A stretch of 35,382 nt of DNA from a bacterium (GCA_003576755.1 QEVT01000031.1:1-35382), one strand, 5' to 3'. Shown: positions 1-33,286, counted from the first letter of the stretch. The notes: a model not told the origin generated them from the letters alone. Numbers and translations: made by a program.

Positions 1-1020
1 GGCAAGCTCGGCGACCCCCGCTTTGCCGCGCAGACCGGCGCCGACGGCCGCTACCTCGACCCGCCGCTGGTCGCCATCCCCGCCGGCGAGTATCCCGTCG
101 GCGCGGCCGACGCGGGGCCCGGCGCGGCGCCGGCGCACGGCGTGCCGCTGGCCGGCTTCGCCATCGGCGCCTTCGCGGTCACCAACGCCGAATGGGCGTG
201 CTTCGTCGCCGCCGGCGGCTACGACGATCCCCGCTGGTGGGACACCCCCGCCGCCGCGGCGTGGCAGCGCGGCGACGCCACCGCCGAGGGCGCGCGCTGG
301 AACTACCGCGAATGGCGCCGGCGCTTCCGCGCCGACCCGGGTTTGGCCGAGCGCATGCGCGCCGAAGGCCGGCTCCCGCCGGCGGTGCACGAAGCCTGGC
401 GCGCGCGGCTGGCGATGAGCGACGAGGCGTTCGAGGAGCATCTCGCCGCCAGCCACCCCGCCGGGCCGCGGCGCGCCCCCGAGCAGTGGGCCGACACCCG
501 CTTCAACCACCCCGCCCAACCCGTGGTGGGCGTGTGCTGGTACGAGGCGCGCGCCTACTGCCGCTGGCTGGCCGCGCAGTCCGGCCGCCCGTTCCGGTTG
601 CCGACCGAGGCCGAGTGGGAGGCCGCCGCCCGCGGCCTCGCCGGCCGGCGGTTCGCGTTCGGCGACGCGTTCGACCCGGCCGCCTGCAACGCCGTCGAGA
701 CCCACGTCCGCCGCCCGACCCCGGTGGGCGTCTTCCCCGCCGGCGACACCCCCGAGGGCGCCGCCGACCTCACCGGCAACGTGTGGGAGTGGACCGCGAG
801 CGCGTGGGGCCCCGATGCCGACGCGCCCGCCTTCGGCTACCCGTACCGGCCCGACGACGGCCGCGAGGCTCCGGCCGCGCCCGACGCCTGCCTTCGCGTG
901 GCCCGCGGCGGGTCGTGGCTCAACGCCGCCGACCTCCTCCACGCCGCCTACCGCTACCCGTTCCACCCCGGCCACCGCAACGATCTCTACGGCTTCCGGG
1001 TGGCGCTCGGCCCGGCGTGA
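1..1020 (+). CDS. FGE-sulfatase (formylglycine-generating enzyme-like) domain protein, 5' truncated by window edge
   Basis: The frame is open from base 1 to the TGA at 1018-1020, so this is the C-terminal ~339 residues of a longer protein. The visible part is a complete FGE/SUMF1-type domain: an opening VAIPAGEYPVG strand, FRLPTEAEWEAAARG in the middle, GNVWEW, then RGGSW and a closing YGFRVAL. FGE domains have a C-type-lectin-like fold. True enzymes carry active-site cysteines near the RGGSW segment; here that segment reads RGGSWLNAADLL without them, so a binding role is more likely than sulfatase activation. The same fold carries the variable repeats of the two downstream DGR targets, but this copy shows no near-identical DNA match to the template repeat. 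The missing N-terminus could hold a TIR, kinase or NACHT module. Confidence 0.85.
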   Translation, partial: GKLGDPRFAAQTGADGRYLDPPLVAIPAGEYPVGAADAGPGAAPAHGVPLAGFAIGAFAVTNAEWACFVAAGGYDDPRWWDTPAAAAWQRGDATAEGARWNYREWRRRFRADPGLAERMRAEGRLPPAVHEAWRARLAMSDEAFEEHLAASHPAGPRRAPEQWADTRFNHPAQPVVGVCWYEARAYCRWLAAQSGRPFRLPTEAEWEAAARGLAGRRFAFGDAFDPAACNAVETHVRRPTPVGVFPAGDTPEGAADLTGNVWEWTASAWGPDADAPAFGYPYRPDDGREAPAAPDACLRVARGGSWLNAADLLHAAYRYPFHPGHRNDLYGFRVALGPA

Positions 1021-8038: not shown

Positions 8039-8192
8039 AAGCAAAGAAGTGGGTGGCGATCACGGTAGATGCGGTGGGTGATAAGCAAAGAAGTGGGTCG
8101 CGATAGGCAAAGAAGTTGTTGGAGTTAGCCAAAGAAGTCGTCGGTGATAGCCAAAGAAGTCGTCAGCGATAGCGGTAGACGTGGGCGGGAAT
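8039..8192. repeat. Seven-unit 22-bp tandem array upstream of DGR target 1
   Basis: Exactly seven contiguous 22-bp units (boundaries at 8061, 8083, 8105, 8127, 8149, 8171). Five carry the core CAAAGAAGT near their start; units 2 and 7 are a second type with CGGTAGA. The 22-bp period is not a multiple of three, arguing against a coding repeat, and equals about two helical turns, so sites would lie on one face of the DNA. It ends ~90 bp before the promoter candidate. Confidence 0.85.
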
Positions 8193-8312: not shown

Positions 8313-8478
8313 ATTGAAGCCATTGACGAGAGGTTACTCTCGAAGATCCAGTCGAGCGTAACGTGACGTTCTCGCAGGCTTTGTCTCGCCTGGATTGCCT
8401 GGACTGACCGCATCTCGCACATCAACTTGCCGCTGTCGGTGGAGCGCGATACCATCCCCATGCCATGGATCCTGCCAC

Positions 8479-11466
8479 ATGAGCGAAGCCCTTCGCTCGC
8501 CCCCGTCGCCGGGAGGGCATGCCCTTGCGCCGCTGCAAACCGTCGCCACGCCGCGCGGCGAGCGTCGGCCGGCGGTGTTCGTGAGCTACGCGCATGCCGA
8601 TCGGGCGTTCGTCGAGCGGTTGCTGGAGGACCTGCGGGCGGCGGGGCACGCGTGTTGGATCGACACGACAGCCATCAAGGGTGGCGACGAATGGACGCGG
8701 GCGATCACCGCGGGCATCGAGAACGCCTACGCCTTCATCAGCGTCGTCAGCGCCGCTGCCAACCGCAGCCGCTGGGTGCAGCGGGAGTTCCTGTGGGCGG
8801 ACCGGAAAGGGCGCTCGATCTTCCCGGTGCTGGGGACGGGCGACGAGCTGCCGATCTACATGGTCGACCGGCAGGCGATCGCGCTGCACCCGGACTACTC
8901 GGGCGGCATCAGGCGGCTGCTGGAAGCGCTGCCGGATCCGGCAGCGGCGGCGGCAGTGTTGGGCGCGGCGGTGCGAGATCCGGCCGGCCGCCGGGCGTTG
9001 GAGCTGGCGTACTTGGACCGTCTCAGGTTCGAAGAGCTGCAACACGCCGACCTGTACACCCCGATGGCCGGCACGGCGCGGGCGGCGCCCAAGCCGAAAC
9101 GACCGGGCGGCTTGCCGTCGGTGGTGGCGCGGCCCGAGGCCATCGACATGCGCCAGCAGTTCGAGGTGTTGCGGGCCATGCAGAGGGCAGACCCGGACTC
9201 AGTGGCCGGGGCGCCGCCGGAGCCGAAGCGGTTCGACAACATCCTGGCGGCGGTCGGCGCGGCCAGACGTGCGGTGGTGCTGGGCGAGCCGGGCGCGGGC
9301 AAGACGACGACGCTGTGGAAGCTGGCGAGCGACGCGGTGGCCACCGCCGAAGGCGATCCGGCGGCGCCGATCCCGCTGTTGGTCCGGCTGGGGCGGTGGA
9401 TCGACCCGGACGAGCCGCTGGAGTCCTTCGTCGCCCGCGAGCTCGGCGATCTCGCGGTGCACCTGGACGCGCTGCTGGCGGAAGGGCGGGCGGTGCTGCT
9501 GCTGGACGGGCTCAACGAGACGCCGGCGGCGGCGCGCGAGGCCAAGGCCGCCGAGGTGCGTGCGCTCCTCGAGCGATGGCCGTCGCTGGTGGCGGCGGTG
9601 ACGTGCCGCGAGCTGGACTACACGGACAAGCTGGACCTCGCGCTGGACCGCATCACGATCCGCCCGCTCGACGCGCCGCGCATCCTGGCGTTCGTCACGC
9701 GGTACTTGACGGCGACGGCACCCGGCGACACGCCGGAGGCGAGGGAGGCGGCCGGCTCGGTGCGGGCGGACGACATGTTCTGGAAGCTGGCCGGCGGCGC
9801 CGCCTTGCGTGGGGTGTGGTCGGTGTGGGAGAAGGCAGGAGCATCGTTCGAGCAGTTCTGGTCGGCGCCGGACATTCCGCGGGCCGACCCGGACGTTTAC
9901 ACGAAGACCACGGTCGCCCAGGACACGGAATGGAACAACGCGGTCAAGAACCCTCGCGGGCTGATGCGGCTGGCGGCGAACCCGTACATGCTGTACATGC
10001 TGACCGACGTGTACGAGCTTCTGGGCGACGTGCCGGCCAACCGGGCGGCGCTGTTCGCGAGCTTCGTAGCGGTGTTGCTGAAGCGTGAGGAGATTCCGGA
10101 CGACGAGGCGACACCGCTGATCGAAGCCCTCGCGTCGCTGGCATATGCGATGCAGGTGCGGAGCGCGGCGGTCGACGACGACGGGGGTGCGGTGACGGCG
10201 GTGCCGCGTGCCACGGCGTTGGAGCTGCTTGCGGAACGCCAGATCTACCGCGCGGCGAGCGCCAGCCTGATCACGGCCGACGACGAGGTGCGCTTCACCC
10301 ATCAGCTCCTGCAGGAGTACTTCGCCGCCCGGCGCATGGCCGATCTGATCCACAGCGGCAAGCTGCAGGCATCCGAGATCTGGCCGCAGGAGCGGTGGTG
10401 GGAGCGCACGGGCTGGGAGGAGGCGGCGGTGCTGCTGGCGGGGCTGATGACGGACGACTGCACGGTGGCGCTCGAATGGGTCGCCGCCGCCAACCCGGAG
10501 GTCGCGGCCCAGTGCGCGCTCCGCAGTGGGGCCAAGGTGCCAGAAGCAACGCTGGCGCGGCTGAGGGATCTATGGATTCCGCGCCTCACCGACCTCGGCC
10601 GTGACCCGGCCCCCGAAGCCCGCGCCGCCGTCGGGCGTGCCTTGGGCGTGCTCACCATCGACGGCCTGCCGCTCGACAACCGGCCGGGCGTCGGGGTGCT
10701 GCGTGACGCGGATGGTCGGTGGATGCCGGACATCGACTGGGTGACCGTGCCGGCCGGTCGTTTTGTCTACCAGGATGGCGAAGCCCGTCGCGAGATCGTC
10801 CTGCCGGCCTTCGACATCGCGCGCCATCCGGTGACGTGGATCCAGTTCCAGGCATTCGTCGACGACCCTGACGGCTACGTTGACGACCGGTGGTGGGTCG
10901 ATCTTGACGACCGGCCTTCGGCGCCGATGGCGGCGGCCTTGCCGATCGCGAACCACCCGCGTGAGACGGTGTCGTGGTACGAGGCGGTGGCATTCTGCCG
11001 CTGGCTCACCGATCGCATGCGCGAGTCGGGGCGAATCGAAGCGGCTGGCATTGTGCAGCTCCCGACCGAGGAGCAGTGGGAGAAGGCGGCACGTGGCACC
11101 GACGGGCGCGAGTACCCGTGGGGCGACGGTTATCGCGTGGGGCATGCCAACATCAACGAGACGTGGGAACGGATCGGCCCCCACAACCTTGGCCGGACGA
11201 GCGCAGTGGGGATATACCCGCACGGAGCATCGCGTTGCGGCGCTCTGGACATGGCGGGGAATGTGTGGGAGTGGTGCTTGAACGAGTATGGTAAGCCTGA
11301 CCGAGTAGGAGTCTCGGGGAATGCCGCTCGCGTGTTGCGCGGGGGCTCGTGGAACAGCGACCGGCTCAGCGCGCGGTCGGCGGCCCGCGGCCGCGACCGC
11401 CCGCACGACCGTAACGACAACATCGGGTTTCGGGTGTGTGGGTCTTCCCCCATCTTGAGGCACTGA
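8479..11466 (+). CDS. DGR variable protein 1: TIR-NACHT-FGE sensor
   Basis: 995 residues from ATG 8479; upstream in-frame TTG 8395 is less likely, and no strong ribosome site is seen for either. TIR domain at ~31-155: VFVSYAHAD box at 33-41 and the putative NADase glutamate E103 in SRWVQREF. NACHT NTPase: Walker A GEPGAGKTT at 269-277, Walker B LLLDGLNE at 340-347, and the helical HQLLQEYFAARR segment near 605. FGE domain from ~753 (DWVTVPAGRF) to 991, with LPTEEQWEKAARG, GNVWEWC and RGGSW. Residues ~949-991 are VR1, varied by the adjacent DGR. The architecture is that of an NLR-like receptor: lectin-fold sensor, oligomerising NTPase and probable NAD-cleaving output. RGGSW is followed by hypervariable residues rather than the FGE catalytic cysteines, so the domain should bind rather than catalyse. 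Confidence 0.93.
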   Translation: MSEALRSPPSPGGHALAPLQTVATPRGERRPAVFVSYAHADRAFVERLLEDLRAAGHACWIDTTAIKGGDEWTRAITAGIENAYAFISVVSAAANRSRWVQREFLWADRKGRSIFPVLGTGDELPIYMVDRQAIALHPDYSGGIRRLLEALPDPAAAAAVLGAAVRDPAGRRALELAYLDRLRFEELQHADLYTPMAGTARAAPKPKRPGGLPSVVARPEAIDMRQQFEVLRAMQRADPDSVAGAPPEPKRFDNILAAVGAARRAVVLGEPGAGKTTTLWKLASDAVATAEGDPAAPIPLLVRLGRWIDPDEPLESFVARELGDLAVHLDALLAEGRAVLLLDGLNETPAAAREAKAAEVRALLERWPSLVAAVTCRELDYTDKLDLALDRITIRPLDAPRILAFVTRYLTATAPGDTPEAREAAGSVRADDMFWKLAGGAALRGVWSVWEKAGASFEQFWSAPDIPRADPDVYTKTTVAQDTEWNNAVKNPRGLMRLAANPYMLYMLTDVYELLGDVPANRAALFASFVAVLLKREEIPDDEATPLIEALASLAYAMQVRSAAVDDDGGAVTAVPRATALELLAERQIYRAASASLITADDEVRFTHQLLQEYFAARRMADLIHSGKLQASEIWPQERWWERTGWEEAAVLLAGLMTDDCTVALEWVAAANPEVAAQCALRSGAKVPEATLARLRDLWIPRLTDLGRDPAPEARAAVGRALGVLTIDGLPLDNRPGVGVLRDADGRWMPDIDWVTVPAGRFVYQDGEARREIVLPAFDIARHPVTWIQFQAFVDDPDGYVDDRWWVDLDDRPSAPMAAALPIANHPRETVSWYEAVAFCRWLTDRMRESGRIEAAGIVQLPTEEQWEKAARGTDGREYPWGDGYRVGHANINETWERIGPHNLGRTSAVGIYPHGASRCGALDMAGNVWEWCLNEYGKPDRVGVSGNAARVLRGGSWNSDRLSARSAARGRDRPHDRNDNIGFRVCGSSPILRH
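11324..11449 (+). repeat. DGR variable repeat VR1
   Basis: 126 bp aligned without gaps to TR 11656-11781 (constant offset 332). There are 13 differences, all at the 27 A positions of TR; no C, G or T of TR is changed. Changes fall at 11357, 11359, 11363, 11366, 11369, 11389-11390, 11392-11393, 11395, 11399, 11407 and 11416. The last 29 bp (11421-11449) are identical to TR and are the expected initiation-of-mutagenic-homing segment. Confidence 0.97.
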
Positions 11467-11517
11467 CTTCTGCATGGCGCGTAGCGCCAGCCTTTGCGCG
11501 AAGCGCTCTGGTCTCTG
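11450..11517 (+). promoter_or_regulatory. Post-VR1 hairpin element (putative homing recognition structure)
   Basis: Immediately after VR1 and spanning the stop codon is a segment homologous to the one following VR2 (13615-13683) but absent after TR. A 33-nt core (11474-11506) is identical. It holds two tight hairpins: TGGCGC-GTA-GCGCCA (11475-11489) and GCGC-GAA-GCGC (11496-11506). A third, CGCGC-GAA-GCGCG, lies at 11537-11549. In the Bordetella phage DGR, a hairpin just after the VR marks it as recipient; this may be the equivalent. Confidence 0.65.
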
Positions 11518-11587
11518 CTGCCGTTGCCGTTCTGTTCGCGCGAAGCGCGTCGCAATTGTTAAATTCCTACGCTCGTCCGATCGCCGC

Positions 11588-11616
11588 TTGACAAGATGGC
11601 CGCTACCCACGAGAAT
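11588..11616 (+). promoter_or_regulatory. Candidate promoter for the template-repeat RNA
   Basis: TTGACA (11588-11593), 17 bp, GAGAAT (11611-11616). The -35 is perfect and the -10 matches four of six. Transcription would begin near 11623, about 30 nt before TR. Confidence 0.5.
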
Positions 11617-11655
11617 AGTGCTACCGGCATGGCCGGTGGGGCACTCTGCGAAGTA

Positions 11656-11781
11656 CCGCTCGCGTGTTGCGCGGGGGCTCGTGGAACAACAACCAGCACA
11701 ACGCGCGGTCGGCGGCCCGCAACAACAACCACCCGCACAACCGTAACAACAACATCGGGTTTCGGGTGTGTGGGTCTTCCC
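11656..11781 (+). repeat. DGR template repeat (TR)
   Basis: The non-coding donor. Read in the target frame it would encode RGGSW-NNNQHN...NNNH..N..NNN, that is, AAC-rich codons at the positions to be diversified, the hallmark of DGR templates, since AAC mutagenised at A yields many amino acids and no stop codons. Its 27 adenines are concentrated at 11685-11752 between conserved GC-rich ends. Confidence 0.96.
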
Positions 11782-11981
11782 ACACCTCCTTCCCCCTTCC
11801 TGGGCGCGGGCCGGCAGTTCGGACCCGTTGCGAGCACGCCCACCGCTCAGGCACGGGCGCGGCTTCCGGAATTGCCTGCCGACTACGGTTTGCAGGCCGA
11901 GGCGAAGGCGAGGAGATGGCGCAGGGTGGTCCCGCCTGTACGGCACGGTGTTGGCTTCTGCCGTCGGGCGCATACAGAGAC

Positions 11982-12020
11982 GAGGCGCCGCCTGGGTGGT
12001 TCGCCGCCCCGCGGCGCCTC
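11982..12020. terminator. Stem-loop between TR-RNA spacer and avd
   Basis: GAGGCGCCGC (11982-11991) pairs perfectly with GCGGCGCCTC (12011-12020) across a 19-nt loop, and overlaps the avd stop codon (12019-12021). It could end avd transcripts on the minus strand and the template RNA on the plus strand. No T-tract is evident. Confidence 0.4.
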
Positions 12021-12360
12021 ACTGTTCCGACCGGATCCAGCCTCCAAGCATCCGCCCGAGTTCGGCGACCATCCGGCTGACGTGTGCGAACTGGCCGTCT
12101 GTCAGCCACGCCCAGCGATGCGCGAGCCGGAGGTATACCCGGAGCTTGTCCAAAGCCGCGTCAGCCTCGCGCAGGTGTCGCTTGCGCGTGGTGCCTCCCT
12201 GACTCTGCGCGTCGTGGAGCGCGTCGTGGAAGTCGAGCGCTGCTTTCATCATCCGTTGCGTGATCGACGATCGATAGGGTCGTGGGAACAGTTCTGCCTT
12301 CGGCAACAGCCACTCCAGCATGTCGTAGGTGCGCGTGAAGATCACCATTTCCTCGGCCAT
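12019..12360 (-). CDS. avd: DGR accessory variability determinant (Avd, four-helix bundle)
   Basis: 113 residues, the usual Avd length. Recognisable by the helical pattern and conserved C-terminal signature: YDMLEWLLPKAELFPR, LRVYLRLAHRW, then HVSRMVAELGRMLGGWI, with the final GRxLGGWI box diagnostic of bacterial Avd. Avd forms a positively charged pentamer that binds RT and template RNA for mutagenic reverse transcription. Start ATG at 12360 has GAGGAG 7 nt upstream. Its orientation is unusual: it is divergent from the reverse transcriptase (only 14 bp between start codons) and antisense to the template RNA path, whereas avd, TR and RT are normally co-oriented. Confidence 0.88.
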   Translation of the reverse strand: MAEEMVIFTRTYDMLEWLLPKAELFPRPYRSSITQRMMKAALDFHDALHDAQSQGGTTRKRHLREADAALDKLRVYLRLAHRWAWLTDGQFAHVSRMVAELGRMLGGWIRSEQ

Positions 12361-12374
12361 GAGGCATCTCCTCG

Positions 12375-13567
12375 ATGAATAGCCCGGCTTTCGAGCGCGT
12401 GGCTGCGTGGGACAACCTGCTCATGGCGTTCCGGCGAGCGGCGCGAGGGAAGAGAGGCGCCCGGTCGGCAGCGGCATTCGAGTACCGGGTGGCGGATCGA
12501 CTTCTGACGTTGCACGATGAACTGGTCCATGGACGGTATCAGCCTGGTCCATATGTACACTTTCATATTCATGAGCCGAAGCTCCGAAAGATCAGCGCCT
12601 CGCCGTTTCGCGATCGTGTGGTCCATCATGCGCTCTGCCAGGTGATCGAGCCCCGCTTCGAGCATTTGTTCATCGCTGACAGTTACGCCAATCGCGTCGG
12701 CAAGGGAACACATCGGGCAGTAGATCGGTTGCAGACGTTCTCCCAGAAGTATCGATACGTGTTGCGCGCGGACGTGGTGCAGCACTTTGCCGCATTGGAC
12801 CATGCTGTGCTCAGGGCGACTTTGGCCAAGGTCATTCCTGAGCATGACGTCATGCATCTGGTCAACATCATCATCACCAGCGGCATCGGTGTGCTGGACG
12901 ACACATACACGATGAAGTGGTATCCAGGCGATGATCCTGAGGGCGTGACAGAACGTTTGATCGAAGGGCTTCCTGGGAGCGCCGGCATCTTGCCGGCTGG
13001 AAGCCGGCGCTCCCAGGATCTGCCACCCGCCCGGGTCAGGGCGATGATCTGTGGGCCACGACCAGGCCGCGCGGGCTGCCGATCGGGAACCTGACGTCGC
13101 AGTTTTGGTCGAACTGCTACATGAACCCGTTCGATCACTTCGTCGTCCGCGAACTGCGCTGCAAGGCTTACCTCCGCTACGTCGACGACTTCGCGCTGTT
13201 TGCCGACGATCGCCGGCAGCTCTGGCACTGGCGAAGGGCGATCATCGAGCGCTTGGGATCGCTGCGGCTCAGCATCCACGAATCATCGGCCCAAGTGGTG
13301 CCCGTCGCCCATGGCATCCCATGGCTCGGCTTCGTCGTCTATCCCACCCATCGTCGCGTCAAGGCCCGCAACGTGCGCAACTTCACCCGCCGACTCCGTG
13401 CCCGCTGGACCGACTACTGCGCCAACCGCATCAGCTTTGCCGAGTTCGACGCCAGCGTGCAAGGCTGGATCAACCATGTTCGATACGCCGATACTTGGGG
13501 TCTCCGCAGGCATGTGCTCGGCCGGCCCATGCCGCGCGAGGGGCCGAGGTTCGGCAAGGCGCAATAG
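12375..13567 (+). pseudogene. DGR reverse transcriptase, interrupted by a 103-bp element
   Basis: The first 187 codons (12375-12935) contain palm motif [15 protein letters not shown] with D133. The reading frame is then broken by an inserted sequence. The downstream part (13040-13567) resumes in another frame with the DGR signature [13 protein letters not shown] (motif 4) and RYVDDF (motif 5). Deleting 113 bp (insert plus one copy of the 10-bp duplication) joins YPGDD to [18 protein letters not shown] and gives 359 residues, normal for DGR RTs; YVDD would be residues 231-234. As it stands, translation from 12375 runs through the insert and stops at 13094, before motif 4. The 3' part could only be made separately, for example from ATG 13121. 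Confidence 0.93.
12937..13039. mobile_element. Small palindromic element (MITE/REP-like) inserted in the RT gene
   Basis: 103 bp flanked by direct repeats GGCGATGATC at 12927-12936 and 13040-13049, interpreted as a target-site duplication. The element begins CTGAGGGC and ends with GGGTCAG, giving only about four terminal inverted bases (CTGA). Its centre is a perfect 16-bp stem (12971-12986 with 13003-13018, TCCTGGGAGCGCCGGC) with a 16-nt loop. No ORF; mobilisation would need a transposase elsewhere. Confidence 0.8.
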
Positions 13568-13614
13568 TCGCAATCGCTCCCGTCGACGGCAACGACAACG
13601 TCAACGACCAACGC

Positions 13615-13683
13615 CAGAGACCAGATGCGCTTCGCGCAAAGGCTGGCGCTACGCGCCATACAGATGTCAGTGCTACACGATGG
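13615..13683 (-). promoter_or_regulatory. Post-VR2 hairpin element
   Basis: Minus-strand homologue of 11450-11517. The 33-nt core (13627-13659) matches exactly and forms the same two hairpins, GCGC-TTC-GCGC (13627-13637) and TGGCGC-TAC-GCGCCA (13644-13658). It lies just beyond VR2 and spans the target 2 stop codon. Confidence 0.65.
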
Positions 13684-16570
13684 GGGAAGACCCACACACC
13701 CGAAACCCGATGTAATGAAAGCGGTCGTGCGGGTGGCTGAGGTCGCGGGCCACCGACCGTGCGTCGTGCTTGTCGTCACCCCACGAGCCCCCGCGCAACG
13801 CGCGATGGGCATTCCCCGCGACTCCTATTCGGTCCCGCCTTCCGTACTCGTTCAAGCACCACTCCCACACATTCCCCGCCATGTCGAGGGCTCCTACCGG
13901 AGACATACCGGCTGGATACATGCCGCCGGCTACGGTGCGCCCCAAACGGCTTTCGGCCGTGTTCGCCTTCTCCGAATCCCACGCCGGCCCCCACGGGAAC
14001 TCGTTCGCGGCGTTGCCCCCTGTCGCCGCCTGCTGCCATTCCCACTCCGTCGGCAACCGCACGACTTGCCCTGCCGCCAACTCGCCCAGCGCCTGTATAC
14101 GCGCCGTTAGCCAGCGGCAGAACGCAACCGCGTCGTACCACGAGACGTTCTCGGCGGGACAGTTGGGCTTCTGACGATACTGCTCCCCTGGCTCTTGATC
14201 CTGAGACAGCCCGTCCCACCACCGCCGATCCCCATACCCGCCCTCAGCCTCGACGAACGCCCGGTACTGCGCCCATGTCACCGCATACTTCGCGATCCTG
14301 AACGGCGACACGTCGAACTCCGCTCCCTCTCCCCTGTCAACGTCAATCGTCACCCGCCCACCCGGCACCTCGCACCACACGATGTCCGGCAGCCCGTCCG
14401 GCCGCAGCCCCACACCCGGACGCGGGTCGCCGATCGCCGCGAGCCGGTCGCCGGTCTCCGCACGGCGGTCGTGGCTGGTCGTCGGATCGCTCAGCTCGTC
14501 CTGCAGCCGCTCGGCTTCAGGGCGAATGAAGGCCTCCTCGTCGTCCGTCAAGTCGGGCTGCAACTGCTCCAGCATCGGCGGCAACAGCGCCAGCCACTCG
14601 TGCGGGCGCAAGAGCGCCCGGCTCTTGCCCCGCGCGACCCATTCCGCCGCCAGCGTGCGCACCTGCCGCAGCAGCACGTAGTGCTCGCGCCGGACCTCGA
14701 TCCACTCCGCAAGCCGCGGCCAGTGCGTGAAGAGCGCCTCATGCGCCACCCCGACCGTCGGGGACTCCCCTTTGTCCGTGACGAGCAACCGCGCATCGAC
14801 GAAGGCCTCGACCAACCGCCTCGCAGGATCGTCCGCCTCAACCTGCGCCTTCGACACCCTGCGCCGCGTCGGCACGCCGCGCTCGTCCACCTCGACGAGC
14901 TGCCGGAACACGTCCGTCAACTTGCCCTGTACTTCGGTCGGGAGACCGCCCAGCGTGGCGTCCGCGCGCCGCGCGATCGCGCCCTTGACGCCGCCAAAGG
15001 CTTCGTACGCCTGCTGCGTCAACCGCCCGTCTCCCGACCGCCGTTCATAGAGCTCCGACAACGCAAACGCCAGCAGCGCCAGGCTCCCCTCGCCCGACCC
15101 GGCGTCGTCGAGGACGCGGTCCACCAGCCCGTCGTCGAAGTCCAGCCCGGCCCGGTACGCCGGCTGGGTCGTCATCGCCCGCAGCGCCGACCGGTCGGCC
15201 GCGGCCAACGGATACGTGCCGGCACCGCGCAGCACCGCGGCCAGCCCACCCGCCACGCAGTGGTCGTAGAAGTCCGCGCGCACTGTCGCCACCACCCGAA
15301 CGGCCTCCATCGCGGCCAGGTCCACGATGGCCTCGAGAAACGCCGGACGGTGTCGCGCATCGACGATCGTGAACACCTCCTCGAGCTGATCGACGAACAC
15401 GACGAGCCGCGCCCACTCCGGACGGCCGGCCACCACCGCGTCGACCACCGCACGCCGTCTCGCCGCATCCCGCAGGTGCTCCGCAACCTCGCGCGGTGCC
15501 CCGCCGCCGGCGCCGAGCACCGGCTTCAGCGCATACGCCAGCGCCACGAACGGATCGCCGCCGGCCTCGCCCGGCGTGAAGCGGTCGGCCAACACCCAGT
15601 CCTTGCCGCCCTCGACCGCGTTGGCCTTCAGACGCGGCACCAGACCCGCCGCCACCAGCGACGACTTCCCCGAGCCCGATGCCCCGACCACCGCCACGAA
15701 GCGCGTCGCCGGATCGGCAAGGGCGCGGATCAAGCCGTCGACCTCCGCCGTGCGGCCGAAGTAGATCGGAGCGTCCTCTTCGGTGAACGCCCGCAAGCCC
15801 GGGAACGGCGAGCCTTGCCACAAGTCCGCCGCCGCGACGCCGTGCCCGCCGCTCCCCCCTCGGGCAGTCGCGCGTCCGCCAGGGCTCCCACTGCCGACGG
15901 GCGCTTCTGCTCCGGCCTCCATCAACCGCGCGATACGCTCCCGCAAGTGCGTTTCGACCATCTTCTCGAACGCGGCCGGCGTCTCGTACGGGTTGAAGCC
16001 GCGCCGGATCGAACCGTCGGGCGCGGCGAACTCCGCGAAGAACGCCTCCACCCGCCCCCACTGCGCCTCCTTGTCGGCGCGCAAGGGGTCCCGCGCCCCC
16101 CACTTCGGCTCCTCCGTCCGGCGATAGACCAGCACATCCGGCCGTCCGCCGGCGTCCGCCGCCCGCACGGCATCCGTGTACTCCCACTCCGTGCCCGACC
16201 AGTAGCGGCTGCCGTCCGGCTTGATGAACTCGCCCCCCGCATCCTCCGGCAGCGGCGTGCCCATCCGCGACCAGAACACCACGACAACGATGTCGCACTC
16301 CGACGGGCGCGGCAGCCCGTTGGCGATCGCTTCCTGCGGGATCAAGTTCGCCAGCATCGGCGTGCCGCCGCCGGGCGTGTCCCACGCCACTGCCTCGATC
16401 TGCACCTTGCCGCGAAACGATGGGTCGTAGCGCAGCTTGTCCAGCACATCGCGCGCAACCTTGCGCTCGTCGGCCACGTCGCCCGGCGACGCCAGGAACA
16501 CGCGCACCGTGCGCGGCGCTCCTGCCGCACCGTCGCCCAGTCCCCCCGCGTTCCTCGGCCAATCATCCAT
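13673..16570 (-). CDS. DGR variable protein 2: DUF4062-nSTAND1-FGE sensor
   Basis: 965 residues from ATG 16570; an in-frame GTG at 16660 would add 30, and ribosome sites are weak for both. DUF4062 domain from ~22 (VRVFLASPGDVADERK). nSTAND1 NTPase: preceding FPGLRAFTEEDAPIYFGR, Walker A GASGSGKSS at 296-304, Walker B VVFVDQLEE around D394, and THWPRLAEWIE in the C-terminal part. FGE domain from ~727, with VSWYDAVAFCRWL, GNVWEWCLNEYG and RGGSW; residues ~921-963 are VR2. The FGE C-terminus shares long near-identical DNA with target 1, showing recent common origin of this domain although the effector and NTPase modules differ. It lies tail to tail with the RT gene. Likely a second diversified NLR-like receptor; DUF4062 probably acts as signalling or effector module. 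Confidence 0.92.
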   Translation of the reverse strand: MDDWPRNAGGLGDGAAGAPRTVRVFLASPGDVADERKVARDVLDKLRYDPSFRGKVQIEAVAWDTPGGGTPMLANLIPQEAIANGLPRPSECDIVVVVFWSRMGTPLPEDAGGEFIKPDGSRYWSGTEWEYTDAVRAADAGGRPDVLVYRRTEEPKWGARDPLRADKEAQWGRVEAFFAEFAAPDGSIRRGFNPYETPAAFEKMVETHLRERIARLMEAGAEAPVGSGSPGGRATARGGSGGHGVAAADLWQGSPFPGLRAFTEEDAPIYFGRTAEVDGLIRALADPATRFVAVVGASGSGKSSLVAAGLVPRLKANAVEGGKDWVLADRFTPGEAGGDPFVALAYALKPVLGAGGGAPREVAEHLRDAARRRAVVDAVVAGRPEWARLVVFVDQLEEVFTIVDARHRPAFLEAIVDLAAMEAVRVVATVRADFYDHCVAGGLAAVLRGAGTYPLAAADRSALRAMTTQPAYRAGLDFDDGLVDRVLDDAGSGEGSLALLAFALSELYERRSGDGRLTQQAYEAFGGVKGAIARRADATLGGLPTEVQGKLTDVFRQLVEVDERGVPTRRRVSKAQVEADDPARRLVEAFVDARLLVTDKGESPTVGVAHEALFTHWPRLAEWIEVRREHYVLLRQVRTLAAEWVARGKSRALLRPHEWLALLPPMLEQLQPDLTDDEEAFIRPEAERLQDELSDPTTSHDRRAETGDRLAAIGDPRPGVGLRPDGLPDIVWCEVPGGRVTIDVDRGEGAEFDVSPFRIAKYAVTWAQYRAFVEAEGGYGDRRWWDGLSQDQEPGEQYRQKPNCPAENVSWYDAVAFCRWLTARIQALGELAAGQVVRLPTEWEWQQAATGGNAANEFPWGPAWDSEKANTAESRLGRTVAGGMYPAGMSPVGALDMAGNVWEWCLNEYGRRDRIGVAGNAHRALRGGSWGDDKHDARSVARDLSHPHDRFHYIGFRVCGSSPIV
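13684..13809 (-). repeat. DGR variable repeat VR2
   Basis: 126 bp, gap-free match to TR on the opposite strand. About 14 differences are at TR adenines and about 10 at other bases (mostly transitions), unlike VR1. The 3' homing segment (13684-13712) is identical to TR and VR1. Encoded residues are RGGSWGDDKHDARS...DLSHPHDRFHY. Confidence 0.93.
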
Positions 16571-16642
16571 GGTCGCGCGATGATACCCATCCCGCTTGCG
16601 CGGCGCCAACCAACCTCCAACATCGTCGCGCAGCACCATCAC

Positions 16643-16716
16643 CACCTTGCCCGCCGACACCGTCGTTCACCACCACAGCCACCTTGCCCGCAAACACCGT
16701 CGTTCACCACCACCGC
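16643..16716. repeat. Two 37-bp tandem repeats in the divergent intergenic region
   Basis: 16643-16679 and 16680-16716 share CACCTTGCCCG, CACCGTCGTTCACCACCAC and differ at few positions. They lie between target 2 (minus) and the SLATT operon (plus), in the upstream region of both. Confidence 0.7.
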
Positions 16717-16748
16717 ATCGTCCTCGCCATCGCCACCGCCACCGCACA

Positions 16749-16777
16749 TTGACAATCCCCCTTGAGCAGAGTAGCCT
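16749..16777 (+). promoter_or_regulatory. Candidate promoter of the SLATT/SLOG-TIR/CHAT/RyR operon
   Basis: TTGACA (16749-16754), 17 bp, TAGCCT (16772-16777). The -35 is perfect and the -10 weak (three of six). It lies ~70 bp before ATG 16845. Confidence 0.4.
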
Positions 16778-16844
16778 ACCCCCATCGCACCCACTCCCAA
16801 TACACCACCCCATCGTCGCGGCCATCGGCGACAAGGAACCGCGC

Positions 16845-17309
16845 ATGGAACCACCCATGACCCCCGCCGCGTACCTCGACACGCGCGTGCAGGACCAGAT
16901 CGACTGGCACGACGCCAAGAGCCGGTGGAACAAGACGTGGTACCGCCGCCTGCAGGGCGCCGTCATCGTGCTCGGCGCGCTCCTCCCGTTCCTCGCCGGC
17001 TTCAGCGGCGCCCCGGCGCCCGGCGCCCGCCTCGCCATCGGCGCCGTCGGCGTGGCCGTGGCCGTCCTCACCGGCCTCGTCACCCTGCTGCGCTTCCACG
17101 ACACGTGGGTCGAGTACCGCCTCACCGCCGAGCGCCTCACCCACGAGAAGTACCGCTACCTCACCCGCACCCCGCCCTACGACACCGACGACGCCTTCGC
17201 CCGCCTCGTCGAGCGCACCGAGGCCATCCTCGGCGAGCAGAACGCGTCGTGGCAGCGCCAGGCCGCGTGGGGCGACGGCGCGCCAACCGCGGCGCAGCCC
17301 CCTCCGTAG
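16845..17309 (+). CDS. DUF4231/SLATT-like two-helix membrane protein
   Basis: 154 residues; start chosen for AAGGA about 9 nt upstream. An N-terminal amphipathic segment (YLDTRVQDQIDWHDAKSRWN) is followed by two adjacent membrane helices at ~residues 33-49 and 55-77, then a cytoplasmic helix LTHEKYRYLTRTPPYD and FARLVERTEAILGEQNASW. This is the pattern of DUF4231, related to SLATT domains, which are proposed pore-forming effectors in nucleotide-signalling conflict systems. It is followed 97 bp later by a SLOG-TIR gene, a context that supports this role. The C-terminal EQNASWQ box is typical of the family. Confidence 0.82.
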   Translation: MEPPMTPAAYLDTRVQDQIDWHDAKSRWNKTWYRRLQGAVIVLGALLPFLAGFSGAPAPGARLAIGAVGVAVAVLTGLVTLLRFHDTWVEYRLTAERLTHEKYRYLTRTPPYDTDDAFARLVERTEAILGEQNASWQRQAAWGDGAPTAAQPPP

Positions 17310-17406: not shown

Positions 17407-18495
17407 ATGGCACAGAACGTACAACGCTGGGTCCTCACGACAGGGTCGTCGTTCCCGTTCGCCCGGCCCGCGCAGCGGGCCGCCCGCATGGCGGGCCACC
17501 TGCTGGCGCAACTGGACCTCGGCCTCGTCGCCGGCAACGCCACCGGCGTCGACCAGTGGGCGAGCGAAGCGTACTGCAGCGAGATCGAACGCCAGGGCCG
17601 GTCCACCGACAGACGCTTTACCCAGCTCTGGCTCCCGTACTGGCGCGGCCGAGGGAGCTGGTGGCCCATGCCCGGGTTTCGCGCGCCCGCTGCTTGCCGG
17701 CAGATCGTGCGCCGTCAGGCCGACTGGATCGAGCACGCATTGACCGCCGCCGATGCCGCGATCATGATCGGTGGGCAGTCCGGAGCGCTCGACATCGCCC
17801 GCCGGTTCATCGACGCCGGCAAGACCGTCCTGCCCGTGCCGTTCACCGGCGGCGCATCCAACGCCGTGTTCCAGGACATCCTCCGCACATGGGGTGACCA
17901 CCCCGTTCCCGGGCTGTCGCGTACCCAGTTCCTCAGCCTCGGCGAGCCGTGGGTCATCGGCGCCGGCCCGCTGCGCAACCTTGTGCTGGGCATCTTCGCC
18001 GACGCACCCGACATTTTCATCTCCTATCGTCGCGCCGACGCGCTGGCCGACGTGGGCCGTCTGTACCACGACCTGGCCGAGCACTTCGGCGAACGCCGCG
18101 TCTTCGTCGACCTCCAGGACATCGGCGCCAGCGACCGCTGGGCCACGACCATCGAGGGCGCGCTCGACGCGTGCAGCATCGGCATCGTCGTCATCGGGCG
18201 AAGCTGGGTGAGCGACCGCCTGCAAAGCGCGCACGACGTGCTGCGCCGGGAAGTCGAATACCTGATCCAGCACGACAAGGTCATCTTCCCCGTCCTCATG
18301 AACGGCGCGGCCTTGCCGACGCCCGAAGCGCTGCCCCCGACCTTGCACCCCCTGCTGGAGCGTCAGGCCCGCAGCCTCGACACGGCCGGCTGGTCCGCCG
18401 CTGTCCACGACCTCATGCGCCAGATCGATCGCCGCCTGCGGGCGTCGCCCCGTTCCACCAACGATCCTTCCTCGCCCGTGGAGATGCGCCCATGA
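17407..18495 (+). CDS. SLOG-TIR fusion protein
   Basis: 362 residues. Residues 1-165 form a Rossmann-like SLOG domain with glycine turns VAGNATGVD (41-49) and IGGQSGALDIARRFIDAGK (121-139), a fold that binds or processes nucleotide-derived ligands. Residues ~201-345 are a TIR domain: PDIFISYRRAD, VFVDLQDIGASDRW, CSIGIVVIGRSWVSD, and candidate catalytic glutamate E282 in RREVEYL. The fusion suggests that ligand recognition by SLOG controls the TIR, perhaps as NAD consumption or signal production. Its TGA overlaps the ATG of the CHAT gene (18492-18495), giving translational coupling. Confidence 0.88.
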   Translation: MAQNVQRWVLTTGSSFPFARPAQRAARMAGHLLAQLDLGLVAGNATGVDQWASEAYCSEIERQGRSTDRRFTQLWLPYWRGRGSWWPMPGFRAPAACRQIVRRQADWIEHALTAADAAIMIGGQSGALDIARRFIDAGKTVLPVPFTGGASNAVFQDILRTWGDHPVPGLSRTQFLSLGEPWVIGAGPLRNLVLGIFADAPDIFISYRRADALADVGRLYHDLAEHFGERRVFVDLQDIGASDRWATTIEGALDACSIGIVVIGRSWVSDRLQSAHDVLRREVEYLIQHDKVIFPVLMNGAALPTPEALPPTLHPLLERQARSLDTAGWSAAVHDLMRQIDRRLRASPRSTNDPSSPVEMRP

Positions 18496-21400
18496 CCACG
18501 ACCCTGGTCGTCCCCGGCATCGCATGGCAGCCCCCCGCCGACGACGTCGACCGGCAGATGCTCGATAGGTTCGGCCTGAAGGTCACGACCCGCCGGGCCG
18601 TGCGCATGGGGCCCGCCGCCCGCGGCGCCGCCGACGTGGTGCGCATCCCCGATGCTCCCGACGATGCCGTCGTCGAGCTCACGTACCCCGACCAGACACG
18701 CGAGTGGCTGCGCGTCGACGAGCTGCGCCGGCGCATCGGCCCGTCGGCGCGCGGCGGTGAGTCGCGGGCCGAGCTCGTCGTCCCGCCCGCCCTCGGTGTT
18801 GCCACCACCCGCGGCGCTTTCGACCTCGTGCTCGAGGGCCTCAAGCTGTTCGACATCGACCCCATCGGCGACTGGTCCAAGACCACCGTCGTCGACATGG
18901 TCGACGCGTTCGAGTCGAAGCTCTTCGGGCAACCCGCCCCCGGCCACCCCGCCCAGCGCGCCGCCGAAAGCGACTGCACGCCGCGCCTCGGCCTCAATCG
19001 GATCGACGCCGCCGGCCGGCTCGAACCCGTCGTCGGCCCACTGCCCGCCGGAGCGGGCCAACCCTACCTCATCCTCCTGCACGGCACCTTCTCGTCCACC
19101 TGCGGCAGCTTCGGCCGGCTGATGGGCTCGCCCGAGTGGGCGTGGCTCCACGAGCGCTACGGCGACCGCATCCTCGGCTTCGACCACTACAGCCTCAGCC
19201 AGAGCCCCGCGCGCAACGCGCTCGACCTCGCCCAGAGCCTCCCCGACGGCGCGCGGCTCGACCTCCTCAGCCACTCGCGAGGCGGAGTGGTGGGCGAGCT
19301 GCTCAGCCTGCGCGAGCTGCCGCCGTCCGCGCTGAGCCACTTCGAGGTGGCCGGGCGTGACGGCGACATCGACGACCTCCGCGCGCTGCTCCGCGTGCGC
19401 GCGGAGAAGCAGCTCCGCGTCGAACGCTTCGTGCGCGTGGCCGGCCCGGCGCGCGGGGTGTGGTTCATCCATCGATTGGACCGTTACCTGTCCATCCTGC
19501 TCAACCTCCTGGAGCTGGTGCCCGCCTTTAGCGCCGGCCCGCTGTTCCCGTTCGCCAAGGCGGTGGTCCTCAGCCTCATCCGGCGCAGCGCCGACCCCGC
19601 CACCGTGCCCGGCATCGAAGCCATCATGCCGAGCTCGCCGTTCATCGACCTCGTCAACCAGCACGGGCTCGGCGCCGAAGGTCGGCTCGCCGTCGTGGCC
19701 GGCGACGCCGAGGGGCGAGGGTTCGCCGGGCGGCTCAAGACGCTGGCCGTCGACGGCCTCCTCCGAGAGATCAACGACCTTCTCGTCGAGACGCGTTCGA
19801 TGTACGGCGGCCTCGCGCGCGCCGAAGACAAGGCCGTGTTTGCGTTCCATCGCGGCCCCGACGTGTGTCACACGACCTACTTCGCCAACGACGCGAGCCG
19901 CAAGTCGCTCTGCGCGTGGCTTGCCGGGCGCGACCAGCCGCCGTCGTCCGCGTTCCGCGCCCTGACGCCCGAGGCGGTGGCGGTGGCCGAGGCGCAGAGG
20001 GACCGTTCCCGCGGGCGGCGCACGGGAGCGGGCGGCCGCGCCGCCCCCATCGGCATGGTGCTCGTCGTCCCGGACGTCATGGCCAGCCACCTCAAGGACG
20101 ACCGCGGCCGGATCTGGCTCGACCCCGCGCGCCTGCGCGAAGACGGCATCGAGCCCCTCCGCCTGGCCGACGACGGCGAACCCGGCGGCATCCGACCCGA
20201 CGGCCTCTTCGACACCACCTACGATCGCCTGATCGATGCCCTCTCCGGCCGCTTCGAGGTCGCCCCGTTCGCGACCGACTGGCGCCGCTCGATCCGGGCC
20301 GAAGGCGCGCGTCTGGCGGACGAGATCTCGCGGCGCCTCACCAGCCAGGCGCTGCCGCTGCACGTCGTCGCCCACGGGGCCGGCGGCCTGGTCGCGCGCG
20401 CGGTCATGGCGGACCATCCCGAGGCATGGTCCGAGCTCGGCCAACGCGGTGGGCGACTCGTGATGCTCGGCACGCCCCACGCCGGCATGTTCCAGACCCT
20501 GCGGCTGTTGACCGGCGAGGCGGACATCGTGCGCCAGGTCGCGCTGCTCGACCCCCGTCGCGACGACGGGCGGGCCGCCGCCATGCTGCGCACCCTGCCC
20601 GGGATCGTCGAGCTGGTGCCGCACGCGCTGACCGCGGCGGGCGCCGCCGCCCCCGCCGCCGCCGCGGCCTGGTGGACGGAACCTGCATTCCAGGCTCGCT
20701 TGCGTGCGGCGGCCGAGTGCCACACCGCGCTCGAGCGCGCAGTCGATGCCGCCCGCATGGTCTGCGTGGTCGGCAGCGCCGACACTACCCCGGCCGGCCT
20801 GTGCGAAGACCACGACGGCCGCCTCACGACGTGCGACGCCGACGGCGGCGACGGCTGGGTGACCGATGACCGGGCGGCGCTGCCCGGCGTGCCGGTCTGG
20901 CGCGTACCCAACGCCCACGGCGACATGCCGCGTGCCGAGTCGGTGGTCACGGGCATCGCCGAGATCTTGGAACGCGGCGACGGCGCCAACCTGCCCCAAG
21001 CGTCGCTGCCGACGCGCGGCGCACGCCGCGGGTTCACCCCGCCTGCGGCCGTGCCGTTGCTGTTCCCCACCGCACCCGAGATGCTCGCCGCCGCCACCGG
21101 GGGCACGCCCCCCGGCGTCCCCGAGGCCGACGCGTTCGTCCTGCGCCTCTCGGTCGCCCACGGCAGCCTCGAACACGCGCGCCACCCCGTGCTGGTGGGG
21201 CACTATGCCGGCGACAGCATCGCCGGGCCCGAGGCCGTCATCGACCGCTGGCTGGACGGGCGGCTGACACGCCGTCACGCGATGGGTCTCTACCCCGGTG
21301 CCGTTGGCACCGCCGACGTCCTCCTGGCGCCCGGGAGCAAGCCGCCCGGCTGCCTGGTCGTCGGCCTCGGGGAGGTCGGCGGCATCTCTCCTGGGTTGCT

Positions 21401-30406: not shown

Positions 30407-32245
30407 TCACTCAGGCACGGCGAGCTCGGCGCAATCCGAGATGACCGACGGCTGGAGAATCTCGATGTTGGCGTTGGCAGGCCACCGACCAAGCAGGGCG
30501 TACGCGGTCAACGCCGCCGACGCGCCGACGATCGCGATGTAGGCGGTCAGGAAACCGGTTGAGAACCGCACATGGGCAACCCGGAGCGCGAATCGGCCGG
30601 CCGCTCGCATGGCCAAGAAGGCCACCGATCCGACGAGCATGGTGGGCATCAGCATCAGGTAGTTCCAGGCATACCCCGCCGACGTCAGGTCGCCGATCGA
30701 CCGGCAGCCTGCCGGCCATTGGGTGACGCTGAGCCACAGCAGGCCCAGGACCGCCCCGAGCACACCGCCGACGAAGGAAATGCGGTGGGCGCTCAGCGTG
30801 TGCCCCCCTGGGAGCGCCACGACGAAGCGGTAGAACCACGCGTACACCTGCTGGAGCAGCACCGCATGCACGAGCAGGAGCCCCGTCGATCGCGCGAGCG
30901 TCAGCAGCGCGCCCGGGAAGCCGGGCGTCAGCTCGGACGCGACCATTGCCAGCAGCGCGACACCGACGACCATCCATCGGCCGCGCGTCAGTTGCTGTTC
31001 CCCGACGTGGCGCCAGCGCCAGTCCAGGATGCCCGGCACGAGCGCGCGGTAGAAGACCTCGTAGCGGGCGTCGCGCTCGCCTCCGTCGATTCCGGAGGCT
31101 GCGAGTGGCCTGAGCACGCGCATATCGGACCGGCACAGGCGTTCAACCACCGACGCGATGCGGTCGTCGGGCAGCTCGGTGTAGAACGCCAACGTGCCGA
31201 CGCCGAGGGCTTGCATCGATCCGTCCGGCGTGACCAGGTACTGGAAGATGCGCGCCGCGATCTCACGATCCGATCGGTTCAGCCGCGCGAGGGACCGGTC
31301 GATGTGGTCGCCGACGATCTGTGGAACACTTCCCATTCGACGGAGGCTCGCGCGGCGCAGGGTGTTCGACCCGCGGCCGACCTCCTCCGCCCACAGCCGT
31401 TGCATCACCAGCTGGAGATACGGGGCCTGGACGCTGACGTCGACCTGGATGTCGTCCACGCCGCCCACGGCTTGAGAGGTCGCCTCGGGCACGGCGAGGT
31501 CCGCGTCGATGCTCTCCGACTGCAGTCGCTTGACGACGTCCTCCGCCAGCCCGGGCTCCAGACGGATGGGTTCGTCTCCAGGGCGGGATCGGTTGAAGGC
31601 CTCCAGCGGGCCTTCGACCGCATCGATGGCGGCGGCGGGCTTCAAGTGCTGAAGCTGGATGTAGCTGCGCAGCACCGCGGCCATCGACCCGGCAAGGCGC
31701 TGGAGCATGGCGAGCGCATCCTCGCGGATGGCGATGAGCACGTGGATCGGGCACTCGGGCTGCGCCAGCAGGTGCATGAGCGCGACCGGGAACGTGCGGG
31801 AGTCCATCGTCAAGAGGTCGACACGCTGGGTGGCGGGATGAAACACGAAGTACTCTTCGAACTGATCGAGGAGCAGCACAAGCGGGACATCCAACACCGG
31901 CGCGAACCGGCTGGCATACGTCGCCAGCGCGCTGTCATCGGGATCGGCAGTGGGGACTCCCGCCACGCGCGCCACTTCGGCCCCGATCGCCCGTTTCAGG
32001 TTGCCGACGACGTCGCCCTGCCAGTCCCGGAACACCACAGCGGTGCGGCCGGGTGTCTGGTGCACGCGATAGGCCACCCCGGCTTCCAGCAGCGACGTCT
32101 TGCCTACGCCGCTGGGGCCGCTCAGGACGGTCAGGCGGCTGGCGTAGACATGGTCGAGCACCACGCGCGCCTCGCGGTCGCGCCCGAAGAACAGCGGGCC
32201 ATCGCGCTCTTCGAATGCCGCCAATCCCTTGTATGGTGAATCCAT
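30407..32245 (-). CDS. nSTAND1 NTPase with C-terminal membrane domain
   Basis: 612 residues. N-terminal YKGLAAFEERDGPLFFGRDRE is the classical lead-in of nSTAND1. Walker A GPSGVGKT at 43-50, Walker B LVLLLDQFEE with D127. A winged-helix-like region follows (LARLNRSDREIAARIFQYLV) and a helical region to ~430. The last ~180 residues hold about five membrane helices (MVVGVALLAMVASEL; LLLVHAVLLQQVYAWFY; ISFVGGVLGAVLGLLWL; LMLMPTMLVGSVAFLAM; FLTAYIAIVGASAALTAYALL). It lies 37 bp after the SIR2-like gene, same strand. A membrane-anchored sensor/switch ATPase is likely; the membrane domain may instead be the killing effector. Confidence 0.88.
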   Translation of the reverse strand: MDSPYKGLAAFEERDGPLFFGRDREARVVLDHVYASRLTVLSGPSGVGKTSLLEAGVAYRVHQTPGRTAVVFRDWQGDVVGNLKRAIGAEVARVAGVPTADPDDSALATYASRFAPVLDVPLVLLLDQFEEYFVFHPATQRVDLLTMDSRTFPVALMHLLAQPECPIHVLIAIREDALAMLQRLAGSMAAVLRSYIQLQHLKPAAAIDAVEGPLEAFNRSRPGDEPIRLEPGLAEDVVKRLQSESIDADLAVPEATSQAVGGVDDIQVDVSVQAPYLQLVMQRLWAEEVGRGSNTLRRASLRRMGSVPQIVGDHIDRSLARLNRSDREIAARIFQYLVTPDGSMQALGVGTLAFYTELPDDRIASVVERLCRSDMRVLRPLAASGIDGGERDARYEVFYRALVPGILDWRWRHVGEQQLTRGRWMVVGVALLAMVASELTPGFPGALLTLARSTGLLLVHAVLLQQVYAWFYRFVVALPGGHTLSAHRISFVGGVLGAVLGLLWLSVTQWPAGCRSIGDLTSAGYAWNYLMLMPTMLVGSVAFLAMRAAGRFALRVAHVRFSTGFLTAYIAIVGASAALTAYALLGRWPANANIEILQPSVISDCAELAVPE

Positions 32246-32282
32246 GGCGGAACCCCTTCCAGGTTCCGATCCTTCAGGAGCG

Positions 32283-33275: not shown

Positions 33276-33286
33276 CACGGGATCCC

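What the first reader, a model, noticed from the sequence alone, without database searches (positions are those of the whole stretch)
11324..11781. Diversity-generating retroelement with adenine-only divergence between TR and VR1
126-bp TR and VR1 align with no gaps. All 13 differences fall on the 27 adenines of TR, none on the other 99 bases. A random mutational process would hardly do this; adenine-specific mutagenic reverse transcription is the known cause. Affected codons are the AAC, CAC and CAG positions of the lectin-fold tip.
Basis: partly seen in the sequence, partly recalled or inferred. Interest (0 to 1): 0.92.

Follow-up and report, generated by a model that had tools for sequence, protein, structure and literature searches.

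The report
Immune-receptor mutator cassette, reverse transcriptase broken
A bacterial cassette that deliberately scrambles the recognition tips of two immune-receptor-like proteins is really here and worked recently, but its reverse transcriptase gene is now split by a small jumping element; a folded RNA next to its template is conserved in relatives from several phyla.

Summary
It is a diversity-generating retroelement (DGR) in an Anaerolineae MAG. VR1 ends a TIR-NACHT-FGE protein. The accessory gene avd (12019-12360) is antisense. The RT gene is split by a 103-bp MITE (12937-13039) flanked by a 10-bp target duplication: a frameshift before the YVDD motif. The cassette was probably active until recently and is now dead in cis. 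The only other RT found in the genome belongs to a different DGR without the same template RNA, so rescue in trans looks unlikely. The layout VR1-TR-[avd antisense]-RT-VR2 marks one RT clade across Chloroflexota, Pseudomonadota and Acidobacteriota. Between TR and avd lies a covarying structured RNA (11853-12022), absent from Rfam, which alone finds other DGRs. DGR-diversified STAND/TIR receptors with MITE-broken RTs are published (Dore et al. 2024), so the locus is a new member; the RNA and antisense-avd clade are fresher.

The parts
8395..11466 (+). Target gene 1: TIR - NACHT - FGE-sulfatase (C-type-lectin-like) protein, 1023 aa
   Evidence: Pfam TIR_2 6.9e-24, NACHT 8.7e-09, FGE-sulfatase 1.5e-45
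11324..11449 (+). VR1, variable repeat at the 3' end of target gene 1
   Evidence: 13 differences to TR, all at TR adenines
11475..11489 (+). Short inverted repeat TGGCGC-GTA-GCGCCA downstream of VR1, present after VR1 and VR2 but not after TR (candidate VR stem-loop)
   Evidence: sequence; alignment of VR1/VR2 flanks; fold (not better than shuffles overall, z about 0)
11656..11781 (+). TR, template repeat (A-only match to VR1 extends over 11654-11784)
11853..12022 (+). Conserved structured RNA element (model R1), 3' part of the presumed TR-RNA, analogous in position to the BPP-1 spacer
   Evidence: covariation; found beside TRs in other genomes; no Rfam match
12019..12360 (-). avd (bAvd-like accessory gene), antisense to TR and RT
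   Evidence: Pfam bAvd 1.6e-19
12375..12936 (+). RT gene, 5' part (model positions 2-188), no YxDD motif
12937..13039 (+). 103-bp MITE-like palindromic element inserted in the RT gene; flanked by 10-bp target duplication GGCGATGATC (12927-12936 and 13040-13049); 113 bp added in all, frameshift
   Evidence: 67 matches in own genome; same 10-bp duplications at five other copies
13040..13567 (+). RT gene, 3' part (model positions 180-340) with YVDD, in another frame
13684..13805 (-). VR2: 14 differences at TR adenines and 8 at other bases
   Evidence: A versus non-A Fisher p = 2.8e-6
13676..16660 (-). Target gene 2: nSTAND1 - FGE-sulfatase protein, N-terminus weakly DUF4062-like, 995 aa
   Evidence: Pfam nSTAND1 6.8e-106, FGE-sulfatase 3.2e-39; DUF4062 E = 0.002, below cut-off

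Best explanation
This is a cellular DGR of Anaerolineae that diversifies the C-type-lectin-like tips of two STAND-type conflict receptors. TR is transcribed into an RNA whose 3' part (R1) is a folded scaffold. An RT-Avd complex copies TR with random bases opposite adenines, and the cDNA replaces VR. VR1 was rewritten recently; VR2 has not been rewritten from this TR for a long time. A MITE has since inserted into the RT gene and split it before the catalytic YVDD motif, so the cassette is now inactive in cis in the assembled genotype. Shown: A-only divergence, the parts, the insertion with its target duplication, the conserved RNA. Inferred: recency of activity, loss of RT function, the role of R1 in recruiting RT-Avd, the role of the targets in phage sensing.
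For: A-only VR1 (p 1e-10). bAvd, RT, FGE, NACHT, TIR and nSTAND1 domains. 47 RT relatives, most with the same VR1-TR-avd(antisense)-RT-VR2 layout and A-only TR/VR pairs. RT is one open frame over model 1-341 in most relatives but split at 188/180 here. The insertion is a 103-bp dispersed element with a 10-bp target duplication, as at five other copies, which an assembly join would not produce. The flanks joined across it align gap-free with the intact C62 RT at the site. R1 covaries in the training set and in 17 independent loci. DGR-diversified TIR/NACHT/nSTAND1 targets and MITE- or transposon-broken RTs are published for clade 5 DGRs (PMC10907252).
Against: No reads were available, so neither present inactivity nor recent activity is measured. 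VR1 changes are skewed to G (11/13, against 42% in relatives), among the most skewed of 40 pairs. The MAG is 82% complete, so an unassembled cognate RT cannot be excluded. The targets' role in defence is inferred from domains only.
Confidence: 0.85

Rival explanations
1. The cassette is still active in trans: an RT-Avd encoded elsewhere in the genome (the intact C62 DGR or an unassembled one) copies this TR.
For: The genome has an intact DGR RT and avd on C62 with A-only VRs and a third bAvd at the end of contig C404. Trans diversification is inferred in Thiohalocapsa PB-PSB1 (PMC10907252). VR1 carries no non-A drift.
Against: The C62 RT is only 47% identical and falls in the other (avd-sense) clade. 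Its TR is followed by no R1-like RNA even with filters off. R1 occurs once in the genome.
Confidence: 0.15
2. The population is mixed: strains with an intact RT coexist with the MITE-bearing one, and diversification continues in the former.
For: Exactly this was seen with long reads at DGR 3 and DGR 7 of Thiohalocapsa PB-PSB1 (PMC10907252). VR1 is free of non-A changes, which fits activity up to the recent past.
Against: No direct evidence; the MAG gives one consensus.
Confidence: 0.3
3. The two RT pieces are made as separate polypeptides that reassemble into a working enzyme.
For: Both pieces keep their conserved motifs, with no further stops or frameshifts.
Against: The 5' frame runs on through the element without YxDD. 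The in-frame ATG for the 3' piece (13121) lies 27 codons after the break. No relative has this arrangement by design; other broken ones look like decay.
Confidence: 0.03
4. VR1 and TR are ordinary duplicates and the adenine bias is accidental or due to selection or gene conversion.
For: TR and both VRs are related by duplication, and VR1 changes are mostly A>G transitions.
Against: Chance of the pattern is 1e-10. RT, avd and the same pattern occur in dozens of homologous loci.
Confidence: 0.01

Closest known systems
Clade 5 (5D) cellular DGRs of Dore et al. 2024 (Thiohalocapsa sp. PB-PSB1 DGR 3 and 6; PMC10907252)
   Same: Two targets with STAND NTPase (NACHT or nSTAND1) plus C-terminal CLec/FGE domain, some with TIR; several loci per genome; degenerate loci; MITE-like elements or transposons breaking RT genes
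   Different: Here the organism is an Anaerolineae MAG; avd is antisense between TR and RT (that paper's main text does not use the word avd or discuss its orientation); a covarying RNA 3' of TR is shown. Membership in clade 5D was not tested with their tree.
Bordetella phage BPP-1 DGR (avd-TR-spacer-brt; AY029185)
   Same: TR/VR with adenine-only change, avd, RT, C-type-lectin-fold target, structured RNA between TR and the next gene that recruits RT-Avd (PMC12875486)
   Different: avd antisense and 3' of TR instead of sense and 5'; two targets on opposite strands; R1 does not match the BPP-1 spacer; target is a receptor-like protein, not a tail protein
Second DGR of the same genome (contig C62)
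   Same: bAvd, DGR RT, FGE targets, A-only VRs (18/24 A changed)
   Different: RT intact (YCDD), avd sense, order RT-avd-TR, no R1 RNA

Membership tests
Diversity-generating retroelement | TR and VR near-identical with differences only at TR adenines | tested here: met
   VR1 13/27 A, 0/99 other; VR2 14/27 A and 8/95 other
Diversity-generating retroelement | DGR-type reverse transcriptase gene nearby | tested here: met
   RVT_1 5.2e-07 on the 3' part; 57 loci with related RTs, most of them beside avd and A-only TR/VR pairs
Diversity-generating retroelement | RT intact and catalytic in this copy | tested here: not met
   split by a MITE with frameshift between model positions 188 and 180, YVDD on the separate piece; inactivity itself not measured
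Diversity-generating retroelement | Accessory gene avd or HRDC | tested here: met
   bAvd 1.6e-19, antisense
Diversity-generating retroelement | VR lies in a C-type-lectin-fold (FGE) or Ig-like domain | tested here: met
   FGE-sulfatase 1.5e-45 covering VR1 and 3.2e-39 covering VR2
Diversity-generating retroelement | Inverted repeat just downstream of VR but not of TR | tested here: inconclusive
   TGGCGC-GTA-GCGCCA after VR1 and VR2, absent after TR, but short and folds no better than shuffles overall
Diversity-generating retroelement | Structured RNA between TR and the next gene | tested here: met
   R1, 18 of 26 pairs with compensatory changes; 92% cells paired versus at most 44% when slid; repeated on 17 independent loci
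Diversity-generating retroelement | Diversification seen in the population | not testable with these tools
   no reads
Clade 5D DGR (Dore et al. 2024) | RT falls in clade 5D | not tested
   reference tree not at hand; a Chromatiaceae relative (L099) groups with the window RT
Clade 5D DGR (Dore et al. 2024) | two targets with STAND NTPase and single CLec domain | tested here: met
   NACHT-FGE and nSTAND1-FGE

The most novel reading that the evidence does not exclude
DGRs with antisense avd form one lineage that spread over several phyla and use a distinct, so far uncatalogued TR-RNA scaffold (R1) lying between TR and a convergent avd gene. The template RNA would thus be an independent transcript ending near the avd stop, not part of an avd-TR-RT operon, and R1 can serve as a search handle for DGRs including RT-less ones.
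Probability: 0.55. Interest if true: 0.5.

Novelty: new member of a known kind. Interest (0 to 1): 0.42.

Why it matters
It adds a DGR that hypermutates the sensor tip of TIR-NACHT and nSTAND1 receptors, that is, an anticipatory, antibody-like diversification of bacterial immune-type receptors, and catches it just after its reverse transcriptase was broken. The conserved RNA beside TR gives a concrete handle for biochemistry of a cellular DGR (the phage BPP-1 RNA is the well-characterised one) and a way to find DGR templates without relying on the RT.

Tried and rejected
Rfam scan: no credible match. C325 FGE fragment as a further TR: no repeat to its VR-like stretch. C259: first taken as an RT-less active cassette, but its TR is truncated after 74 bp and lacks the 3' end, so it is a remnant. 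VR2 as a current target: rejected as recent, since its non-A divergence (8/95) is about that of the duplicated flanks (6 differences in 60 bases 3' of VR). Orientation relative to replication as a general cause of VR2 staleness: relatives often have both VRs clean. R1 in BPP-1 and in C62: no convincing match. Free-energy test of R1 in the window sequence alone is weak (z -1.6); the support is covariation, not stability. PADLOC: only TIR-, SIR2- and RT-level partial matches, no complete named system.

Full report
Observation. TR (11656-11781) and VR1 (11324-11449) align over 126 bp without gaps; 13 differences fall on the 27 adenines of TR and none on the other 99 bases: 11 A>G, 1 A>T, 1 A>C. 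Chance of that placement is 1.2e-10. The A-only match extends to 11654-11784.

Anatomy. VR1 lies at the 3' end of a 1023-aa TIR-NACHT-FGE protein (8395-11466). A second copy, VR2 (13684-13805, minus strand), ends a 995-aa nSTAND1-FGE protein (13676-16660) that faces it. Between them lie a bAvd gene on the minus strand (12019-12360) and the RT on the plus strand. VR2 differs from TR at 14 adenines and 8 other bases. Adenines are still strongly over-represented (Fisher p 2.8e-6), so it was diversified by a DGR, but the non-A divergence (8/95) is about that of the duplicated 3' flanks (6 in 60). VR2 has therefore probably not been overwritten from the present TR for a long time, whereas VR1 has been.

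The RT is broken. The 5' part (12375-12936) carries RT model positions 2-188 and the 3' part (13040-13567, with YVDD) positions 180-340, in different frames. Between them is a 103-bp palindromic element, CTGAGGGCGTGACAGAACG...GGGTCAG, flanked by the 10-bp direct duplication GGCGATGATC. The search with its core found 67 matches in the same genome, eleven of them identical over the 61 bp searched, this one included, and five other copies (L012, L013, L015, L020, L021) carry their own 10-bp duplications. Joined across the insertion, the flanks align gap-free at that site with the intact RT of contig C62. A wrong assembly join would not give a matching target duplication with both RT halves in register. 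Most of the 47 relatives with a usable RT match have a single open frame; L069 (in-frame stop) and L109, L112, L113 (N-terminal part missing) are other decayed cases.

Can another RT serve it? The genome assembly (82% complete) holds one more DGR RT, on C62, with its own avd, TR and A-only VRs (18 of 24 adenines changed), and a third bAvd at the end of C404. The C62 RT is 47% identical, falls in the other RT clade, and its locus has no RNA like that of the window. Rescue in trans is possible but not favoured. C259 holds a remnant: a truncated TR, an A-mutated VR (13/16) and no RT.

Relatives and layout. A search of GTDB genomes with the RT 3' part found 57 loci, mainly Anaerolineae and other Chloroflexota, Accumulibacter and other Pseudomonadota, and Acidobacteriota, plus a Candidatus Poribacteria MAG. 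Most show VR1(+)-TR(+)-avd(-)-RT(+), often with VR2(-), and A-only TR/VR pairs, the longest of 90-136 bp. On the RT tree the loci with antisense avd form one group, apart from Chloroflexota loci with sense avd, which include C62 (midpoint-rooted FastTree, supports not examined). The window's genome is of class Anaerolineae: genome G257, reported as same class, is the genome of L087, an Anaerolineae MAG (identical contig position of the RNA match).

A conserved RNA. The stretch between TR and the avd stop (mostly 170-400 bp) is non-coding yet conserved at about 60-68% identity across phyla. Its last about 170 bases (window 11853-12022) fold into conserved helices: 26 pairs, 18 with compensatory change; 92% of cells paired against 31-44% when the partners are slid; 78 double changes against 25.6 in shuffles. 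A covariance model (R1) found the element beside TRs in loci not used to build it. Searched by RNA alone in 400 genomes of the phylum it hit 7 (the window's own included), and in four of the genomes first reached this way (L129-L132) the hit lies immediately 3' of an A-only TR. On 17 loci outside the training set the pairs again covary: 94% paired, 90 double changes against 28 shuffled (that alignment is fitted to the model). It matches nothing in Rfam 15, not the BPP-1 DGR, and occurs once in this genome. In BPP-1 the spacer 3' of TR folds, recruits bRT-Avd and primes cDNA synthesis (PMC12875486); by position R1 is its counterpart (inference).

Surroundings. The window also codes a SLATT/DUF4231 protein (16596-17309), a TIR protein (17407-18495), a CHAT/TPR protein (within 17949-23942), a separate nSTAND1 protein (30407-32245) and a SIR2 protein with a ThsA-like N-terminal match (32283-33305): a conflict-system neighbourhood.

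What is known. Dore et al. 2024 (PMC10907252) describe clade 5 DGRs of multicellular bacteria that diversify STAND receptors with NACHT or nSTAND1 and CLec/FGE domains, some with TIR; several loci per genome; MITE-like elements and transposons breaking RT genes; strains with intact and broken RT side by side; and trans activity. Kaur et al. 2020 (PMC7159879) linked FGS (FGE) domains and DGRs to conflict systems. The window is therefore a new member of a known kind. In the searches of the held library I found no mention of avd orientation in this clade or of a covarying RNA there, but most subscription papers are not held, and the supplement of Dore et al. was not read.

Verdict. Observation confirmed; DGR interpretation supported; the cassette is most likely recently active and now RT-dead in cis. 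Interest is moderate: the locus is of a published type, and the covarying RNA with the antisense-avd lineage is the part worth following.

Noticed in passing
G000 contig C62 (L060): RT 12533-13642(-), avd 12214-12513(-), TR 12031-12115(-), VRs 8897-8981(-) and 13726-13816(-): A second, intact DGR of the avd-sense clade in the same genome, with up to 18 of 24 TR adenines changed in VR.
   Followed up: partly
G000 contig C259 (L063) 11171-11244 and 11449-11522: DGR remnant: A-only VR (13/16), TR truncated after 74 bp by other repeats, no RT on the contig; the facing FGE gene (11754-14954) is a 64% homologue of the window's TIR-NACHT-FGE gene.
   Followed up: partly
G000 contig C404 (L059) 8503-8802: Third bAvd gene 68 bp from the contig end; a further DGR may be cut off there.
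   Followed up: no
window 12937-13039 and about 67 matches in G000: Dispersed MITE with ends CTGAGGGCGTGACAG.../...CCGTCAG and 10-bp target duplications; lengths 103, 131-132, 143 and 208 bp.
   Followed up: partly
window 11324-11449: VR1 substitutions are 11/13 A>G, while relatives show G 279, T 275, C 117.
   Followed up: partly
L094 1702-1809 and 2295-2401 (Candidatus Accumulibacter meliphilus): Dispersed copies of the 3' half of the R1 RNA (93-95% identical to the DGR's own) inside a repeat unit without TR.
   Followed up: partly
L109, L112, L113, L069: Other DGRs of the clade with truncated or interrupted RT but A-only TR/VR pairs: recurrent loss of RT.
   Followed up: partly
window 142-1020: Another FGE-sulfatase domain protein; its C-terminus resembles the VR region but matches no TR. 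The genome has about 30 FGE-sulfatase matches.
   Followed up: no
window 30407-33305: nSTAND1 protein next to a SIR2 protein with ThsA-like N-terminus: candidate separate defence pair.
   Followed up: no
window 17407-23942: TIR protein followed by a long CHAT-TPR protein with a DUF7379 domain: candidate conflict operon.
   Followed up: no
window 8041-8172: Tandem array of about 22-bp units GCAAAGAAGT...GATA upstream of the TIR-NACHT-FGE gene.
   Followed up: no
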